Shown one piece after another: positions 49,684-60,313 of a stretch of 64,000 nucleotides of DNA. The translations under genes and the position numbers were made by a program. The stretch's first letter is position 1, and each line of letters opens with the position of its first letter. The notes below the pieces were generated by a model. It did no database searches. It was not told the origin of the DNA and saw only the letters and a program-made list of their open reading frames with translations. Source of the DNA: an uncultured Acidobacteriota bacterium (lineage in GTDB: Bacteria; Acidobacteriota; UBA6911; CAINFC01); assembly GCA_903847975.1 (NCBI GenBank), contig CAINFC010000079.1, positions 1 through 64,000 of the forward strand. The letters are read 5' to 3'.

Positions 49684-51036
49684 TCAGCGGATTACGGAAG
49701 GAAGATACAATTTATATGCATAGTTGATGTTGCTGGTGGTAACCGCTTCCGCCAAATTGCTGTAGGAGGAGGATCCGGCCTGATTGAAGGCCTGGATGCG
49801 GTACAGGTAGCCCGTGCCGGCAGCAGCCGTGGCATCCACATAGCTGGCGGAGCCGGCCGGAAGGGAGACCAGCAGCTGCCAGCTGACGCTGCTCCGGAGG
49901 GTCCGTTCCAGACGGAACCCGTCCTCATTGGTGCTGGTATCCTGCCAGGTGAGGCTGACTTGCGTGGAGCTTAGGCCGCTGGCGGTAAGATTGGCCGGGG
50001 CGAACGGTGGCTCCGTCAGGTTCAGCTGCCAGCCGATATCGGTGAGAATACCGGAGGTCACCGGCCCGGGCGTGTGAATGGCCTCTCCGAAGCCGATGGA
50101 ATAGGTCATGACGGCATTCTGGGTGCTGTTGAATCCTTCATCCAGATGGGTGTAGCTGGACCCGGAGACCCAGGTCGATGGGGCGTACAGCTTGACCGAC
50201 AGACCTCCGTTGGCTTTCCTGGCGGCTGCTCCCGTAAAGTAGATGCCGCCGCCGGTCAGCACCGAACCGAGAGCGGTGGAGGGAGAAGGGTAGCTGAGAA
50301 GAGAAGTGCCGCTGCCGTCCGCGGTGAAGCGGTCGTAGATGGCGGGATTGGGAAAGCGCAGGGAGCCCGAACCGCTGGAGACCGTGAAGGCCCCGATAAA
50401 GCCCAGGCCGTGGGCGATTTCATGCAGGACAACGGTGACCAGGTCCACCTTGTAGCCCGGGTTGCCGTCCGTGCCCAGGTACCAGTTGCTGTTACCGTTG
50501 ATGTCGACGATCATATCGGGCACTGTGGGAACCAGCCTGGTTCCGGCCAGGTGGTTGGAAAGGGATAATGGGTAATAGGTGTTCTTCACCGGGGCGTTGG
50601 GCGGATCCTGAACCAGGTTGGTGGAAGTCGTCCCCAGGTTGCTCGTACTCAAATCAGTGCGCCAGCAGGCCGCCACTTCAATGGCTACCGTCGAATTGAC
50701 CAGGGATGCCCAGATGTCGCTGGCATACTGGAAGGATGTCATGGCCTCGGCGGGCCAGGCGGCGAGAGTACCGCGGCAGCTGCTGCCGTTGAAACTGATG
50801 TGTACCTGCGCGGCGGGGGCGCGTCGGGCCCGGTAGTCGGTGAAAGAGGGGGGCGGCGGAGTGAAGCTCGGCTTGTATTGGTTGTCCAGCACGACGGGCA
50901 CAAAACCGGACTCCTGGATCAGAAAGGGAGAAGTTGCTTGCGCTTCGGCCATGCAGAAGCCGGTGCCGGCAATACCGGCGAGGCAAAGTGCCAAAATCCT
51001 TCGTTTCATTCCGGGGCGCTGGCTCAGGCTATTCAT
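49684..51036 (-). CDS. Secreted matrixin-like metalloprotease with FN3 and LYLPSVIR tail
   Basis: 450 residues. The signal peptide is RRILALCLAGIAGTGFCMAEA (an internal ATG at 51009 is an alternative start). The metzincin-type zinc site is VTVVLHEIAHGLGFIGAF, HExxHxxGF with a third ligand supplied a few residues later by a nonstandard position. A preceding domain with a twin-residue NSTVAIEVAACW pattern and a large insert (NPAIYDRFTADG) match reprolysin/matrixin-like secreted proteases of environmental bacteria. A fibronectin type III domain follows (ASGLSSTQVSLTWQDTSTNE), and the last residues are KLYLPSVIR, the same kind of tail as in the proteins ending at 6149 and 18357. Extracellular protein degradation is the likely role. 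Confidence 0.82.
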   Translation of the reverse strand: MNSLSQRPGMKRRILALCLAGIAGTGFCMAEAQATSPFLIQESGFVPVVLDNQYKPSFTPPPPSFTDYRARRAPAAQVHISFNGSSCRGTLAAWPAEAMTSFQYASDIWASLVNSTVAIEVAACWRTDLSTSNLGTTSTNLVQDPPNAPVKNTYYPLSLSNHLAGTRLVPTVPDMIVDINGNSNWYLGTDGNPGYKVDLVTVVLHEIAHGLGFIGAFTVSSGSGSLRFPNPAIYDRFTADGSGTSLLSYPSPSTALGSVLTGGGIYFTGAAARKANGGLSVKLYAPSTWVSGSSYTHLDEGFNSTQNAVMTYSIGFGEAIHTPGPVTSGILTDIGWQLNLTEPPFAPANLTASGLSSTQVSLTWQDTSTNEDGFRLERTLRSSVSWQLLVSLPAGSASYVDATAAAGTGYLYRIQAFNQAGSSSYSNLAEAVTTSNINYAYKLYLPSVIR

Positions 51037-54185: not shown

Positions 54186-55475
54186 TCAGCGGATGGCGAA
54201 AGAGCTGGCGGTTTCCATGATCTGCTGGCCGGTAGTCGGATCCAGGATTTTCGTTTTAATCTGGTATACGCCGGAGGGAAGCGAGGGAGTCACCTTGAAA
54301 GGCTGAAACGGCTCCAGGCGAATTTCCGAGCCCGCGGTTAGGACCAGGGTGCCGTCGGCCCCGACCGAAAAAACGGAAATGGGGAGCAGGCCGGGGCCTT
54401 CCAGCCAGATTTTCAGCTCGATGGTGGCGGAAGTGATGTCCTGGTTTCGAATGCGACAGCCCTCCGTGGAAGCCACGGTTTCCCCCATGGAGTAGCTGCT
54501 CTTTCCTATTTGAAAGTCCACTGCCAGGGTGGGCCGGGTGGTCCGCGGAGCGAAGGTCGGCGTCTCGGATGGCGTGGCAATGGAGAAGGGGCTTATTTTT
54601 TCGGAGATAATTTCCCCGGTAACCGGATCAAGAGCCCGGGCATTAAACTCGTACTTGCCCGAGGGGAGATCCGAAATGACCGGCATAAGCTGTACCGGGC
54701 CATATTCCTCATCGGAGCCGGGTGCCAGGGAATAAAGCCCGTCCGCACCGACCGTTCCTACCGGGATCGGTGCCGTGCCAGGGACGGCCAGCCACGTTTT
54801 AACCTCGATTCGCTTTTCGTAGTTGGAGGGGTTGGAGAGATGGTACAGGTTGGCGGCCACCGTATCGCCGAAGCGGTAGACGTCCTTGCTCATCCGTATG
54901 TCGATGTTGGCGTACCCGGCGTTGGACCGGGAATCGGCGGCCTGCTTCATCGAGGACTCGATCCAGGAGGTCGTTTCGTGGCTTTCTTCAGCTGCTGCGT
55001 TATCCCGCCGGCTGGTATGGCTGGTATAGCCGCCGGAAAGCGTGAAGGAGGCAGCGGGGGGAGAGGCGATTGTCTGCACGGTGGCGGATCGCAGCTGGTC
55101 CGAGCGATCCGCGGCAGAGGAAGCGCGGGCGGAGACGCTCTGGCAGAAGAAAGTCCAGAAAAGCAGCAGCGAGGCGGCCAGCTTGAGTCCGACGCCGGCC
55201 TGCGGCTGGATCAGGCGCAGGCCGACCCGGTAACGACCTGTTTCGGAATCTGTTTTTACCCAGCGGACTTCTGCTTCGGACCGGAATCGATCGCCATGCA
55301 GCAGAGTTACTATACTGCCCGGAGAAGCGAAACTGCGATCCAGGATGATACCGCAGCCCTGGCGGCTGAAGTCGACACTGGTTCCGGAAACCTTGAAGGG
55401 AAGTCCTTCAACGGACGTTCCCGTCATGACCACCTGAACGCTCAGGCTGGCCCGGATGTTTTTCCTTGAATTCAT
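54186..55475 (-). CDS. PilZ domain protein with membrane segment and duplicated outer domain
   Basis: 429 residues. Residues 1-92 are a PilZ domain with both c-di-GMP-binding signatures: RxxxR in SRKNIRAS at residues 4-8 and DxSxxG in VDFSRQGCG. One membrane segment (LKLAASLLLFWTFFCQSV) lies at about 97-115. The rest is presumably extracytoplasmic and holds a linker and two copies of a domain of about 105 residues, each with FG/GETV near its start, a central KxWL..PG..PI.V..VGADG, and an end LPSGxYx..xxxLDPxTGxxI. Neither copy matches a family I know. Binding of c-di-GMP inside and of an unknown ligand outside is inference. A terminator separates it from the upstream permease operon. Confidence 0.78.
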   Translation of the reverse strand: MNSRKNIRASLSVQVVMTGTSVEGLPFKVSGTSVDFSRQGCGIILDRSFASPGSIVTLLHGDRFRSEAEVRWVKTDSETGRYRVGLRLIQPQAGVGLKLAASLLLFWTFFCQSVSARASSAADRSDQLRSATVQTIASPPAASFTLSGGYTSHTSRRDNAAAEESHETTSWIESSMKQAADSRSNAGYANIDIRMSKDVYRFGDTVAANLYHLSNPSNYEKRIEVKTWLAVPGTAPIPVGTVGADGLYSLAPGSDEEYGPVQLMPVISDLPSGKYEFNARALDPVTGEIISEKISPFSIATPSETPTFAPRTTRPTLAVDFQIGKSSYSMGETVASTEGCRIRNQDITSATIELKIWLEGPGLLPISVFSVGADGTLVLTAGSEIRLEPFQPFKVTPSLPSGVYQIKTKILDPTTGQQIMETASSFAIR

Positions 55476-55560
55476 AGCTTCTTCCGGATGACCTGCTGAC
55501 CTCCCACTACCTTTATGGCTAATATTCTGCTGGATTTAGCATGGCGTTGTCAAGGAAAAT

Positions 55561-55600
55561 GGAAAATAAAACAGCTGTTTTTTCACGAAAAACAGCTGTT
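55561..55600 (-). terminator. Strong terminator of the permease operon
   Basis: AACAGCTGTTTTT (55570-55582) and AAAAACAGCTGTT (55588-55600) form a 13-bp perfect stem with loop TCACG. On the minus strand it is followed by TTATTTT. It lies 22 bases beyond the permease stop. Confidence 0.8.
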
Positions 55601-55621
55601 CCCGGCGAAGTTGAATGGAAC

Positions 55622-57040
55622 TCACTCCGGTTGCGATTCCGAGGGAGGCGGTTCGGTCGGAGCGTCATCCGGCAGCGGTTTTTTTCCGGACAAGCTCCAC
55701 TCCCAGTAGTAATAAACCGGTATTCCCGAAAGGACCACCATCAGGGCAAACCAGGTTGTCCGCGTCCAGGCCAGAAGCGCCGAGGCCGCCATGCAGAAGG
55801 TAAGCGCTATGAAGGCAGCCGGAATCCAGGGGAAGAAAAAGCGCGGGGTTCCCTGCCGGGGGACCAGTTTTTTCCGCTTTAAGAAAAACAGCCCCAGGAT
55901 GGCCAGCAGAGGGAATACGGTCAGGGCGAATCCCATGTACTCCAGCAGCTTCTGGGCGCTGCCGGTAAAGATGTAGAGAATGGCCAGGATCATCTGCAGA
56001 AGAATGGCAATCCACGGAGTGCCCAGACGCGGATGCACCCGGGCCAGAGGAGAAAACATCAGCCGATCCCGGGCCATCGCGAAGTAGACCCGGGGGCCGA
56101 TCATCATCTGCACCGAAATCGAAGACAGCAGAATTAAAGAAATGCCCAGGGTGTAGAACTGGACGATCGGCAGGGGAAAGAGATGGCGCGCCGCGAGGGC
56201 TCCGACGGCTTCCTGCCCCATCAGGTCCGGACCGGGCACGGCGATCAGGTATACCAGATTGAGAAGAAAATAGAGAGCGGCGGTGCAGGCCGTACCGTAC
56301 AGGAGGGCTTTTCGCAGATTGCGCTCCGGATCCCGGATCTCGCCGGCGATGTAGGAGGCGGCATTCCATCCGGAATAGGAAAACATGATGATGAGCAGCG
56401 ACAGGCCCCAGATAGGCAAATCCGCTGCGGGCGCGGCGGACTCCGCCGGATAGACCGCCGCCAGTCGGGCGGCCTGGCTCCAGTCGGCCATCCACAGGCC
56501 GCCGGCGGCAAAGGATGCCGCGATCAGAAACTTCAGGACGGTCAGTCCGTTTTGAATCCGGCTGCCCCACTGCACTCCGACGATGTGCAACAGGCCGAAA
56601 AAAAACACCAGGAAGGCCGCCAGGAGCTTCTGCGGCCCGGTCCCGGAAATCAGGTCGGCGGTATTCCCGGCGGCGTCCGGCAGCTCCCGGTAAAAGGCGT
56701 TCAGATAGGAAACGAAAGCCAGGGCGCTGGTGGCCACCGGGGCCGAAAAGCCCACGATCAGGGAAATCCAGCCGGTCAGGAAGCCCGGCAGCCGCCCGAA
56801 GGTCTTTTTCAGGTAGACGTATTCGCCGCCGGTCTGCGGCCACAGAGTGGCCAGTTCCACATAGCAGAGGGCGCCGCAGATGGCGGTGAATCCTCCCAGA
56901 AGCCAGAGCAGCAGCACCAGCCAGGCCTGGCGGGTCATTTGCAGGATGATTCCTGTGGTGAAAAAAATCCCGGTTCCCATCATGCTGGCGATGACCACCA
57001 GGGTGGCGGTGGGGAGTCCCAGCTGGCGTTTCAATTCCAC
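55622..57040 (-). CDS. APC-family amino acid permease
   Basis: 472 residues from a GTG at 57040, chosen because AGAGGAAG lies just upstream and the protein then begins VELKRQLGLPTATLVVIASM, the normal start of the family. About 12 membrane segments are visible; first-helix motif SMMGTGIFFTTG and TGGEYVYLKKTFGRLPGFLTGW are typical of APC transporters. The C-terminal tail (LPDDAPTEPPPSESQPE) is acidic and cytoplasmic. It should import an amino acid or related compound by cation or exchange coupling; specificity unknown. Its start is 16 bases after the zinc-ribbon gene stop, in one operon with the PEP/pyruvate-binding protein, and it is about 5 kb from gdhA, which would use the imported amino acid if glutamate. 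Confidence 0.9.
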   Translation of the reverse strand: MELKRQLGLPTATLVVIASMMGTGIFFTTGIILQMTRQAWLVLLLWLLGGFTAICGALCYVELATLWPQTGGEYVYLKKTFGRLPGFLTGWISLIVGFSAPVATSALAFVSYLNAFYRELPDAAGNTADLISGTGPQKLLAAFLVFFFGLLHIVGVQWGSRIQNGLTVLKFLIAASFAAGGLWMADWSQAARLAAVYPAESAAPAADLPIWGLSLLIIMFSYSGWNAASYIAGEIRDPERNLRKALLYGTACTAALYFLLNLVYLIAVPGPDLMGQEAVGALAARHLFPLPIVQFYTLGISLILLSSISVQMMIGPRVYFAMARDRLMFSPLARVHPRLGTPWIAILLQMILAILYIFTGSAQKLLEYMGFALTVFPLLAILGLFFLKRKKLVPRQGTPRFFFPWIPAAFIALTFCMAASALLAWTRTTWFALMVVLSGIPVYYYWEWSLSGKKPLPDDAPTEPPPSESQPE

Positions 57041-57056: not shown

Positions 57057-57323
57057 CTATTCCGAATTTGTTTCGTCCCGGCCGGCGGACTCGCTTTCTC
57101 TGCCGGTGCGGCGATCCGACGGGGCGGCGGGCGGGGCGGATGGGAGATCATCGTATAGGTTGAGTAGAATATGGTACCAGCAACCCTTGCAGATCAGCGC
57201 CCGGTCTACACTGAGCAGAACCTGCTCCCAGGAGCTGAGCTCGCGGCCGCACTGCGGACAGGCCGACATGGCTTCCTCGGGATTGGTGCGATGCATATCT
57301 CCGGTCATTCCGTGAATCCTCAT
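57057..57323 (-). CDS. Small zinc-ribbon protein
   Basis: 88 residues. Two cysteine pairs (CPQCG at about 22-26 and CKGC at about 46-49) form a zinc-ribbon-like site, linked by WEQVLLSVDRAL. A proline- and charge-rich tail follows. The ATG overlaps the stop of the large upstream gene by four bases (ATGA), which argues for translation and coupling. Function unknown; it may be an adaptor for its neighbour or act in regulation. It is easily missed because its end overlaps a longer false start of the permease. Confidence 0.65.
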   Translation of the reverse strand: MRIHGMTGDMHRTNPEEAMSACPQCGRELSSWEQVLLSVDRALICKGCWYHILLNLYDDLPSAPPAAPSDRRTGRESESAGRDETNSE

Positions 57324-60313
57324 GGTTTGGGTTTGAGAACGACGCCGCGGCCCTCCCGGCTGTTCATCTTGACGAGGAGCGGCGAAGGAAAACGAAGGTG
57401 ACGCACGAACTGCATTTCCGCCGCCGCCGGGCAGGTCCGCAGCCAGGACCAGTCGATAAAGTTATCCTGATTCTCGACCGGGATGGTGAAATAGCCGACC
57501 ATGAAGGAAATCAGGTTCTGAAAAAAGTGCGAGCCCTGGGAGGGTGCCACGTTGAAGTCCCTGAAATTGGCTTCGGCAATGACCCGGACGCCGGAAATCT
57601 GGTCCCAGGTCACCGGGATTCCCAGCCAGGGATCCAGGCTGCCCAGGCGGCCGACCGTGATCAGGACGTACGGTCTTTTTTCCGAAATGAGCTGGTTGTT
57701 GATCTGGTTGATTTCCGCGGCCACCTCGGCGCTCTTCGCCCGGTCGTACCGCTCGCGGTCCACGACCACCAGGTCGAACAGGTGGCTCATGGATCCGTGC
57801 CCCAGGACCTGGTGGCTCGAAAGCAGCATTTCCTCGCGGCGGTGGTCTCCGATGGTCAGCTCCTCCTTTTCGCGGCTCAGCACCAGGGGGCGCATCTGCA
57901 GCAGGCCGAACTCGATCGGATTTTTCTTCAGGTTGACCGCAAACTCGATTTCCACCGGGGTGCCCATGCCCCACACCCCCATGCCCAGGAGCAGGTCGAT
58001 GATTCTGGCCAGCGGGAAATCCCTGTTTTTCAGCAGCGGCTGGAAGGTGGCCACGCGGATGCCGCTGCGGGAAATGCCGTCCAGAATCCGGTCGTCCTCC
58101 GGAGAGTAGGTCGACCCGATATAAGTCAGAGTGCCGTCGTTTTCCGCATCTTCCAGCTGCAGGGTGACGATGTTCGGATCCCGGGCCGGAAGGGGCTCGC
58201 CGGCTCCCGAGGAGAGGTTGAGGGCGTAAAAAGCGCGCTGGCTGGCGTTCAGACGGTCTTTCACGCTGCTGAAGGGATATCCCTGCAGCGGATACTTGGG
58301 GCAGAAGCGGAAAGACACGCCACCGTCCACCACGGTTTTTCCCAGCCCCAGGGCCAGCGAAGCCACTCCGTCGGCGGATTTCTGCGGAGGAACAGGATAG
58401 TAATTGTAGGACCGGGCCACACCGGAAAATTCCGGGTAGAACCTTCCGCGATAGGTGTTGCCGACCATGCGCTGCACGATGACCGCCATTTTTTCCTCTT
58501 CCAGCCGGTAGGAGGTGGCCCGGAAGTAGTCCTTGGGGCCCTGGTAGAAAACGGAGGCATAAACCCTCTTGATCGCTTTCAGCAGCTCTCCGAGCCGCGA
58601 CAGCGGGTCCGGCTGGTTGTTGGCAATCATGCAGGTCTGGTACACCCCGGCGAAAGGATGATACTGGGAATCCTCCAGAAGGCTGGAGGAGCGCACCGCC
58701 AGAGGGTCGCGGACCAGGTCGAGAAAGGCCACCAGCTGGGCCAGGATGGATTCGGGAAAGAAGGCGGCGGACAGGAAGCGGTCCAGGATCTTCCGGTCGT
58801 CCGGCTCGCCCAGGGCAAAAGCCCGCAGCTGGTTGGTGTCCAGAAATTCGTCAAAAACGTCCGTGCCCAGGATGATTGCCGGCGGAATGCGGATGGAGAT
58901 TCCGGCGAAGCGGTCCTGCACCAGGTAATTGCTCAGCAGGATATTGACGAAACTGAGCCCCCGGGCTTTTCCGCCGATGGAGCCCCTGCCGATGCGGGCG
59001 ATGCTTTTTTTAGGGTCGAAGGAGTCCTTGCGGAACTCGCTGACGATGCCCCGCTGCCAGATCCGGCGATAGTCCCGCAGCGAGGAGATCAGGTCGGCGC
59101 GCATCAGCTCGATGTTGGGGAAGTCCGAAACGGTCCGCGGCCGGAGCTTGTGGGCCAGCCAGAATTCGGTTCGGGCTTTGAGCCAGTGCGAGAAATGATT
59201 CCGTTCGGCATGGTATCGTATGCTTTCCGAGGGGACCACCGTCAGCTGCTGCTCCAGGGAGATCAGGTCCTGCGCCCGTCCGACCTCGCCTCCGTCCGGG
59301 AGGCGGAAGACAAAATCGCCGAAGCTGAAGTTCTCCATCATGAAGCGGTGCAGCTCCACCGGAAAGTCGGGAGCGTTCTTCAACAGGAAGGAGGCCCCCA
59401 GGGCCTGGGCCTTGGCGCTGTTGTCCGGCTGGTTGGACTGGAAGAGAAAGGGGATGTCGGCGTGGATGGACTTCACTTTCTGGTAGAATCCCAGGCCGGC
59501 CTCGGGATCCATCCGGCCCTGCCGGGGGAAGTCGATGTCGGAAATCACCCCCAGCACGTTTTCCTGGTACTTTTCAAAGAATTCCCAGGCTTCCTCGAAA
59601 TGGATGCAGTGCAGGATTTTCGGGCGGGCCCGCGTGCGGATTTCCTTGTGAGAGAGATTGATCCCCTCGGCGATCAGCCGCTGGGCCTGCTGGATGACTT
59701 CGCGATAGATCATGGGCAGCAGGTAGGAGTAGTAGCGGACGTTGTCCTCGATGGCCAGGATGGTCTGCACGCCGGCGATGCGGGTGTCGTGGTCCACGTT
59801 GAGCCGGTCTTCCAGCTGCTTGATGATGGCGATCAGCAACCGGAAATCCCCCTGCCACATGTAGACCCGGTCGAAATGCCGGACGTCCTCATGGTGAAAC
59901 AGGCTGCTGAGCTCCAGGTTGTCGTAGGTGAGCAGAACGATCGGTGTGGTAACCCCCGCCTGCCGGACCAGCTTGGCAAGGGTGGGTGCGGTCATGTCCT
60001 CGATGTGCAGCGTGGTGATGATCAGGTCGAAGTGCTTCTCTTCCTTGGCCAGGGCCAGCGCCTCCCGGCCGCTGGAAACCCGGGTGATCTCCGGCGAATG
60101 GCTCAGCTTCAGGGCCTGGTATTCGTTGCGCAGCAGCTCGTAAAGCCGCCCGTCCTCCTCGAAGACGAAGAGATCATAGAGGCTGGAGACCAGCAGGATA
60201 TCGCGAATGCGGATGCGCATCAGGTTCTGAAAGCCCTGAAAACGCCGTCCGTATCCGTGTTCCACCCAGCTGGGGTCGAAATGGGTCAGAACGTCCTTGA
60301 ATGTGTTGGGCAT
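57320..60313 (-). CDS. PEP/pyruvate-binding (PPDK N-terminal) domain protein with two receiver-like domains
   Basis: 997 residues. Residues about 36-175 look like a receiver domain but the phosphoacceptor position reads FDLIITTLHIEDM (Thr for Asp), so it is a pseudo-receiver. Residues about 185-345 form a second receiver-like domain that keeps Asp in GVISDIDFPRQG and the acidic IEDN. Residues about 440-880 are the ATP-grasp PEP/pyruvate-binding domain (GSIGGKARGLSFVNILLSN, then DPLAVRSSSLLEDSQYHPFAG). The phosphohistidine swivelling domain and the PEP-binding barrel of true dikinases are absent. The enzyme could use ATP to phosphorylate an unknown acceptor, or act as a sensor. First gene of an operon with a zinc-ribbon protein and an APC permease. 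Confidence 0.85.
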   Translation of the reverse strand: MPNTFKDVLTHFDPSWVEHGYGRRFQGFQNLMRIRIRDILLVSSLYDLFVFEEDGRLYELLRNEYQALKLSHSPEITRVSSGREALALAKEEKHFDLIITTLHIEDMTAPTLAKLVRQAGVTTPIVLLTYDNLELSSLFHHEDVRHFDRVYMWQGDFRLLIAIIKQLEDRLNVDHDTRIAGVQTILAIEDNVRYYSYLLPMIYREVIQQAQRLIAEGINLSHKEIRTRARPKILHCIHFEEAWEFFEKYQENVLGVISDIDFPRQGRMDPEAGLGFYQKVKSIHADIPFLFQSNQPDNSAKAQALGASFLLKNAPDFPVELHRFMMENFSFGDFVFRLPDGGEVGRAQDLISLEQQLTVVPSESIRYHAERNHFSHWLKARTEFWLAHKLRPRTVSDFPNIELMRADLISSLRDYRRIWQRGIVSEFRKDSFDPKKSIARIGRGSIGGKARGLSFVNILLSNYLVQDRFAGISIRIPPAIILGTDVFDEFLDTNQLRAFALGEPDDRKILDRFLSAAFFPESILAQLVAFLDLVRDPLAVRSSSLLEDSQYHPFAGVYQTCMIANNQPDPLSRLGELLKAIKRVYASVFYQGPKDYFRATSYRLEEEKMAVIVQRMVGNTYRGRFYPEFSGVARSYNYYPVPPQKSADGVASLALGLGKTVVDGGVSFRFCPKYPLQGYPFSSVKDRLNASQRAFYALNLSSGAGEPLPARDPNIVTLQLEDAENDGTLTYIGSTYSPEDDRILDGISRSGIRVATFQPLLKNRDFPLARIIDLLLGMGVWGMGTPVEIEFAVNLKKNPIEFGLLQMRPLVLSREKEELTIGDHRREEMLLSSHQVLGHGSMSHLFDLVVVDRERYDRAKSAEVAAEINQINNQLISEKRPYVLITVGRLGSLDPWLGIPVTWDQISGVRVIAEANFRDFNVAPSQGSHFFQNLISFMVGYFTIPVENQDNFIDWSWLRTCPAAAEMQFVRHLRFPSPLLVKMNSREGRGVVLKPKP

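What the first reader, a model, noticed from the sequence alone, without database searches (positions are those of the whole stretch)
54186..55475. PilZ domain joined across one membrane segment to a duplicated unknown domain
Both c-di-GMP signatures are present in the first 92 residues, a single membrane segment follows, and the outer part contains two copies of a domain of about 105 residues sharing KxWL..PG..PI.V..VGADG and LPSGxY...LDPxTG. An inside-out or outside-in c-di-GMP coupled protein with this outer domain is not an architecture I know.
Basis: partly seen in the sequence, partly recalled or inferred. Interest (0 to 1): 0.62.

Follow-up and report, generated by a model that had tools for sequence, protein, structure and literature searches.

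The report
c-di-GMP sensor fused to matrix-like domains
An acidobacterial gene joins an internal sensor for a bacterial 'settle down' signal, through one signal-peptide-like membrane segment, to a pair of domains that resemble a cholera biofilm glue protein, suggesting a direct but untested link between that signal and the cell's outer coat.

Summary
In detail: a 429-aa ORF on the minus strand (55475-54186) carries a PilZ domain with RxxxR and DxSxxG, one hydrophobic segment, and two copies of a ~112-aa domain. The outer domain is not of unknown kind. Sequence profile (RbmA first among 177,635 PDB sequences) and fold (eight RbmA chains fill the top eight Foldseek rows, for the tandem and for one domain) both say RbmA-like fibronectin III, the tandem unit of a Vibrio cholerae biofilm matrix protein. 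Single-domain scores stay below Pfam's cut-off, so it is a distant relative, not an RbmA. PilZ is truly part of the protein: three full-length homologues in two acidobacterial genomes keep it at about 50% identity. The hydrophobic segment has signal-peptide anatomy, so anchored versus cleaved is open. In two other genomes the same tandem domain ends large secreted fn3-LamG proteins without PilZ; two of the three PilZ versions sit directly behind a separate fn3-LamG gene, which suggests a partnership. Best reading: an Alg44-like c-di-GMP receptor whose outer part binds polysaccharide or an fn3-LamG surface protein. New variant of a known kind; c-di-GMP binding and cleavage untested.

The parts
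54186..55475 (-). ORF, 429 aa: PilZ - hydrophobic segment - linker - tandem RbmA-like FnIII
55200..55466 (-). PilZ domain, residues 4-92
   Evidence: Pfam PF07238 above cut-off; 47-51% identical in three full-length homologues
55452..55466 (-). RxxxR c-di-GMP motif, R4-R8
   Evidence: read directly; R4 and R8 invariant in 4 of 4 aligned modules
55356..55373 (-). DxSxxG c-di-GMP motif, D35-G40
   Evidence: read directly; D35, S37, G40 invariant in 4 of 4 aligned modules
55128..55184 (-). Hydrophobic segment K98-A116 with signal-peptide anatomy (positive residue, about 13 hydrophobic residues, Q/E, V-S-A at -3..-1)
   Evidence: same pattern in all four PilZ proteins
54912..55127 (-). Poorly conserved linker, residues 117-188
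   Evidence: 25-35% identity with many gaps (counted over 118-188); pLDDT under 50 for 93-168
54933..54968 (-). Short helix SWIESSMKQAAD, residues 170-181, found in the three full-length PilZ forms but not seen before the tandem domains of the two fused forms
   Evidence: alignment, sequences, helix 171-181 in the model
54576..54911 (-). Outer domain copy 1, RbmA-like FnIII, residues 189-300
54189..54527 (-). Outer domain copy 2, RbmA-like FnIII, residues 317-429
55568..55602 (-). Terminator-like hairpin (15 pairs, then ATTTT) closing the upstream permease gene
   Evidence: fold z -4.1 for 55557-55625
55524..55553 (-). Promoter-like TTGACA-N18-CAGAAT upstream of the ORF
   Evidence: 10 of 12 matches; 0.3 expected per region; a consensus match only

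Best explanation
It is an inner-membrane c-di-GMP receptor built like Alg44: PilZ in the cytoplasm, one membrane pass directly after it, a flexible linker of about 70 residues, and a tandem RbmA-like FnIII unit on the outer (periplasmic) side. c-di-GMP binding to RxxxR/DxSxxG changes the PilZ or its dimerisation, and this is passed through the short segment to the tandem FnIII unit, which binds an exopolysaccharide and/or an fn3-LamG surface protein, so that matrix or adhesin attachment follows the internal c-di-GMP level. Shown here: the domains, their order, conservation of both motifs, RbmA-like fold, and the gene neighbourhood or fusion link to fn3-LamG proteins. Inferred: c-di-GMP binding, orientation, lack of cleavage, ligand, and coupling.
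For: PilZ above Pfam cut-off with both motifs invariant in four modules. PilZ, segment and both copies all conserved at 42-54% identity among the three full-length homologues, while the linkers are at 12-35%. RbmA is the best PDB match by profile (A5: E 6e-4, next unrelated 0.17) and by fold (Foldseek rows 1-8, E 3e-11 to 3.4e-9 over 245-253 columns; single domain TM 0.74-0.77; VIA Z 12.4 over 211 residues). The genome has 15 GGDEF matches, so c-di-GMP is probably made. Fused versus split fn3-LamG: fused in G033 and G027, adjacent genes in G000:C6 and G015:C792. LamG-covering matches to the fn3-LamG protein at E <= 1e-30 occur in exactly the four of 38 class genomes that hold the tandem domain. 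Alg44 gives the precedent for PilZ - one pass - periplasmic domain and RbmA FnIII-2 binds polysaccharide (section read).
Against: The hydrophobic core is short (about 13 residues) and ends in a signal-peptidase-like site, so the outer part may be released. No EPS synthase or fn3-LamG gene was found beside the window copy among the genes scanned; its neighbours are an amino acid permease and a Gfo/Idh-type gene. RbmA's R234 is not conserved (aligned residue Q262). No binding data. An inner-membrane anchor would keep the outer part in the periplasm, away from the matrix in which RbmA acts.
Confidence: 0.47

Rival explanations
1. Cleaved version: the segment is an internal signal peptide; signal peptidase cuts after A116, the tandem RbmA-like unit is released (and exported further as a matrix or adhesin subunit), and PilZ stays behind on a membrane stub, where c-di-GMP may gate export or serve another partner.
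For: All four PilZ proteins have K/R, about 13 hydrophobic residues, Q/E, then VSA, TFA, SFG or SFA. In G015:C12 a tandem paralogue of 142 aa lacks the PilZ domain and has the equivalent segment at its N-terminus like an ordinary signal peptide. RbmA itself is secreted from a 30-aa signal peptide (passage of PMC4551309). In G033 and G027 the tandem unit belongs to ordinary secreted proteins.
Against: A folded 92-residue domain before a cleavable signal peptide is unusual (own knowledge). A long unconserved linker after the segment fits a tether. The 142-aa paralogue could be a decayed gene.
Confidence: 0.3
2. PilZ is only a cytoplasmic plug or partner-binding domain without c-di-GMP response; the protein is a simple membrane-anchored FnIII protein.
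For: Some PilZ domains do not bind c-di-GMP (for example PilZ itself, passage of PMC12564702); P0003 and P0006 score just under the Pfam PilZ cut-off (20.6 and 20.8 against 22.5).
Against: Both binding motifs are invariant in four of four modules.
Confidence: 0.13
3. The outer domain is a generic E-set or FnIII sandwich and the RbmA resemblance says nothing about polysaccharide or matrix.
For: Single-domain PF22021 scores (21.6, 16.5, 15.2) are under the cut-off of 27; AlkC, Spo0M and transglutaminase domains come close in VIA (Z 10 to 11.6 against 12.4).
Against: RbmA ranks first in three comparisons: profile, tandem fold, single-domain fold, and it shares the tandem arrangement.
Confidence: 0.1

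Closest known systems
Alg44 (Pseudomonas alginate co-polymerase)
   Same: N-terminal PilZ, one membrane pass, periplasmic C-terminal part (passage of PMC8461298)
   Different: Alg44's outer part is a membrane-fusion-protein domain and its gene lies with alginate synthesis genes; here it is a tandem RbmA-like FnIII unit with no EPS synthase found beside it
RbmA (Vibrio cholerae biofilm matrix protein; Pfam PF22021 RbmA-like_FnIII)
   Same: Tandem FnIII unit; best match by profile and fold; family-invariant W228 aligns with RbmA W203
   Different: RbmA is free, secreted from a signal peptide, has no PilZ; R234 and W222 of RbmA are not kept (Q262, Y248 in the alignment); 14-18% identity for the tandem
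LapD (c-di-GMP inside-out receptor)
   Same: Couples internal c-di-GMP to an outer-side event for adhesion (starts of abstracts PMC3032545, PMC3032553 in the listing)
   Different: LapD senses with a degenerate EAL domain and has HAMP and a periplasmic PAS-like part (recalled); no PilZ, no FnIII
fn3-LamG secreted proteins of G033 and G027 (Acidobacteria CTSoil_012 and Zod_Metabat.240)
   Same: Carry the same tandem outer domain at their C-terminus, 31-41% identity
   Different: No PilZ; ordinary N-terminal signal peptide and fn3 and LamG domains in front

Membership tests
PilZ (PF07238) | Match above the curated cut-off | tested here: met
   28.3 bits against 22.5; paralogue P0002 30.1; P0003 and P0006 20.6 and 20.8, just below
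PilZ c-di-GMP receptor | RxxxR and D/NxSxxG | tested here: met
   R4, R8, D35, S37, G40 invariant in 4 of 4 modules
PilZ c-di-GMP receptor | Binds c-di-GMP | not testable with these tools
   needs protein
RbmA-like FnIII (PF22021) | Score above curated cut-off | tested here: inconclusive
   whole protein P0001 24.3, P0002 31.4 against 27; single domains 21.6, 16.5, 15.2, all below
RbmA-like FnIII fold | Tandem FnIII with RbmA as nearest solved structure | tested here: met
RbmA (orthologue) | Switch residue R234 | tested here: not met
   aligned residue is Q262 (Q, E, S or T in relatives) by the alignment with offset 30; alignment is weak
RbmA (orthologue) | Free secreted matrix protein beside EPS genes | tested here: not met
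   N-terminal PilZ; neighbours scanned are not EPS genes
Alg44 | PilZ - one pass - periplasmic membrane-fusion domain | tested here: not met
   first two parts met by sequence; outer part is FnIII-like, with no membrane-fusion match
Cleavable signal peptide | Cleavage by signal peptidase after A116 | not testable with these tools
   anatomy fits; no predictor or experiment available

The most novel reading that the evidence does not exclude
The PilZ domain is the cytoplasmic front part of a working internal signal peptide, so that c-di-GMP binding gates the export or release of an RbmA-like matrix protein: post-translational control of matrix protein release by direct c-di-GMP binding to the matrix protein's own precursor.
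Probability: 0.12. Interest if true: 0.85.

Novelty: new variant of a known kind. Interest (0 to 1): 0.55.

Why it matters
In Vibrio, RbmA is a separate secreted protein with no c-di-GMP sensor of its own. Here sensor and matrix-type domain are one polypeptide, with a natural split and fused series (fn3-LamG plus tandem FnIII, with and without PilZ) that suggests what the outer part touches. If it works as proposed, it is a one-protein link from c-di-GMP to the cell surface in a little studied phylum, and a compact system for testing how a PilZ domain sends a signal across one membrane pass.

Tried and rejected
Mispredicted start: rejected; PilZ is kept in frame in three full-length loci at 47-51% identity. 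The window gene has no in-frame ATG, GTG or TTG in the 45 codons before the hydrophobic core, so the outer part is unlikely to start on its own there; the other three PilZ proteins do have such codons (3, 4 and 3), so internal starts are argued against only for the window gene.

PilZ remnant upstream of the 142-aa paralogue in G015:C12: none found, scores within shuffles apart from the last strand that belongs to the ORF itself. Pfam PF22021 in 396 genomes of the phylum: 0 at E <= 0.001, and no control genome rang, so this shows nothing about absence. Viral contigs: none. First genome-contig scan with the single sequence found none; the second, with the tandem-domain alignment, found 4 loci, which rests on two short peptide patterns, so wider relatives may be missed. 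Weak match G040:C125, E 8.5e-5 over 58 positions: left out of the family. Hydropathy alone does not separate the segment: of 8 other PilZ ORFs of the genome, one reaches 1.84 in a region far from its PilZ end, the other seven 1.30 or less. Literature: no paper holds RbmA, PilZ and 'fibronectin type III' together; 14 hold PilZ and RbmA, seen as a listing only, titles are Vibrio or biofilm papers; the one paper with PilZ and 'fibronectin type III domain' names them in separate proteins (passages). These searches cover only the open library.

Full report
What is there. The finding lies on the minus strand: ORF 55475-54186, 429 aa. Pfam gives PilZ at residues 4-92 above its cut-off (28.3 against 22.5 bits) and a sub-threshold RbmA-like_FnIII match at 341-423 (24.3 against 27). 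Copies 1 (189-300) and 2 (317-429) align with score 189, against at most 49 in 2000 shuffles. The gene seems to be its own transcription unit: a 15-pair terminator-like hairpin closes the upstream permease gene and a TTGACA-N18-CAGAAT site follows; these are consensus matches only.

Is PilZ really part of it? Yes. The genome holds one paralogue (G000:C6, 45% over the full length) and G015 one homologue (47%; named record QHZE01000460.1, Acidobacteria bacterium gp18 AA62). Over PilZ the three are 47-51% identical without gaps, over the copies 47-54%, over the 118-188 linker 25-35% with gaps. A fourth protein, G015:C12 (221 aa), has the same PilZ and segment but another outer part; a fifth match, G015:C166, is cut by its contig end at model position 80. 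R4, R8, D35, S37 and G40 are invariant in the four aligned modules. At E <= 1e-14 the PilZ-segment module was found in 2 of 396 genomes of the phylum.

The segment. K98 then LAASLLLFWTFFCQSVSA. In the others: K-VAVSLLLSWAFLAQATFA, R-IAASLLLSFAYLSQASFG, R-TAASLLLCVAFLGELSFA. This is the build of a signal peptide (positive residue, about 13 hydrophobic residues, polar residue, small residues at -3 and -1). In G015:C12 the neighbouring 142-aa ORF begins at the last PilZ strand and carries the equivalent segment at its N-terminus without a PilZ domain. So anchoring and cleavage are both open. I put anchoring first because of the Alg44 precedent and the linker, at modest confidence.

The outer domain. 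A profile of nine copies puts RbmA first among 177,635 PDB sequences (E 6e-4 and 8e-4; next 0.17); with the tandem profile the same two come first, E 0.021 and 0.026. Paralogue P0002 scores 31.4 bits for PF22021 as a whole protein, but single domains score 21.6, 16.5 and 15.2, below 27. The full-length model (mean pLDDT 68, copies 63-91 by blocks of ten, residues 93-168 under 50) gives eight RbmA chains as Foldseek rows 1-8 (E 3e-11 to 3.4e-9; TM only 0.22-0.23 by query, rmsd about 14, probably because the two domains are turned differently). The one-domain model (pLDDT 88.9) again gives RbmA in rows 1-8 (TM 0.74-0.77, rmsd 2.7-3.3). VIA ranks RbmA first at Z 12.4, with AlkC at 11.6 tied by its own rule. 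In the alignment, with offset 30 (271-aa precursor with a 30-aa signal peptide), RbmA W203 falls on the invariant W228 and R234 on Q262, which is not conserved. I conclude a distant RbmA-like tandem, not an RbmA.

Where else the tandem domain occurs. It was found in 4 of 38 class genomes and in 5 of 396 phylum genomes, the fifth weak and left out. In G033 (JAFNAG010000360.1) and G027 (JAFGIY010000170.1) it forms the C-terminus of secreted fn3-LamG proteins (817 and 1262 aa), and neither genome has the PilZ-segment module at E <= 1e-12. In G000:C6 and G015:C792 the fn3-LamG protein stops after LamG, and the PilZ gene follows on the same strand 87 and 43 bases later. Matches covering the LamG part at E <= 1e-30 occur only in these four of 38 genomes; five others match the fn3 part only. 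The four are related, so this is not an independent count. The window copy has no such neighbour among the genes scanned.

Surroundings. The genome has 15 GGDEF matches and 11 PilZ matches on 10 ORFs. A PAS-GAF-GGDEF gene lies about 1.9 kb upstream of the C6 fn3-LamG gene. In G027:C226 an exosortase-like ORF and several PEP-CTERM-like ORFs lie beside a tandem-domain fragment (labels recalled from sequence, not tested).

Mechanism. Papers used: PMC5605196 (abstract, introduction and section 7 read: RbmA is a tandem FnIII protein that binds VPS through FnIII-2), PMC8461298 (passages: Alg44 is PilZ, one pass, periplasmic part), PMC12564702 (passages on PilZ effectors), PMC4551309 (passages: RbmA is secreted from a 30-aa signal peptide), PMC7898620 (passages: mutants W203G and W222G lose autoproteolysis). 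From these I infer a PilZ receptor whose outer side binds polysaccharide or the fn3-LamG protein. The steps shown are domain order, motif conservation, fold and gene linkage; c-di-GMP binding, topology, cleavage, ligand and coupling are inferred.

Noticed in passing
window 49684-51036 (-) and L014 1347-2453: A metalloprotease-like secreted protein with fn3 ends in YKLYLPSVIR and an FGE-sulfatase-domain protein beside the C6 paralogue ends in RIFLPLLLR: a shared C-terminal tail that might be a sorting signal.
   Followed up: no
L016 8817-10368: Tandem paralogues of 221 and 142 aa: one with PilZ before the signal-peptide-like segment, one without; the outer part is a different, about 100-residue domain.
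   Followed up: partly
window 57320-60313 (-): 997-aa protein with a response-regulator receiver-like part and a PPDK ATP-binding domain (Pfam matches).
   Followed up: no
L019 1-7364: Exosortase-like ORF and PEP-CTERM-like ORFs beside a fragment of the tandem domain in G027 (labels recalled from sequence).
   Followed up: no
L018 1-7267: Two fn3-LamG-tandem genes in G027 separated by a 383-aa ATPase-like ORF (label recalled); one runs off the contig end.
   Followed up: no
L013 13863-15437: PAS-GAF-GGDEF gene about 1.9 kb upstream of the fn3-LamG and PilZ-FnIII pair on C6.
   Followed up: partly
L045: Weak match (E 8.5e-5) of the LPxGxY...DPxTG stretch in a large secreted-looking protein of another class (G040).
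   Followed up: partly
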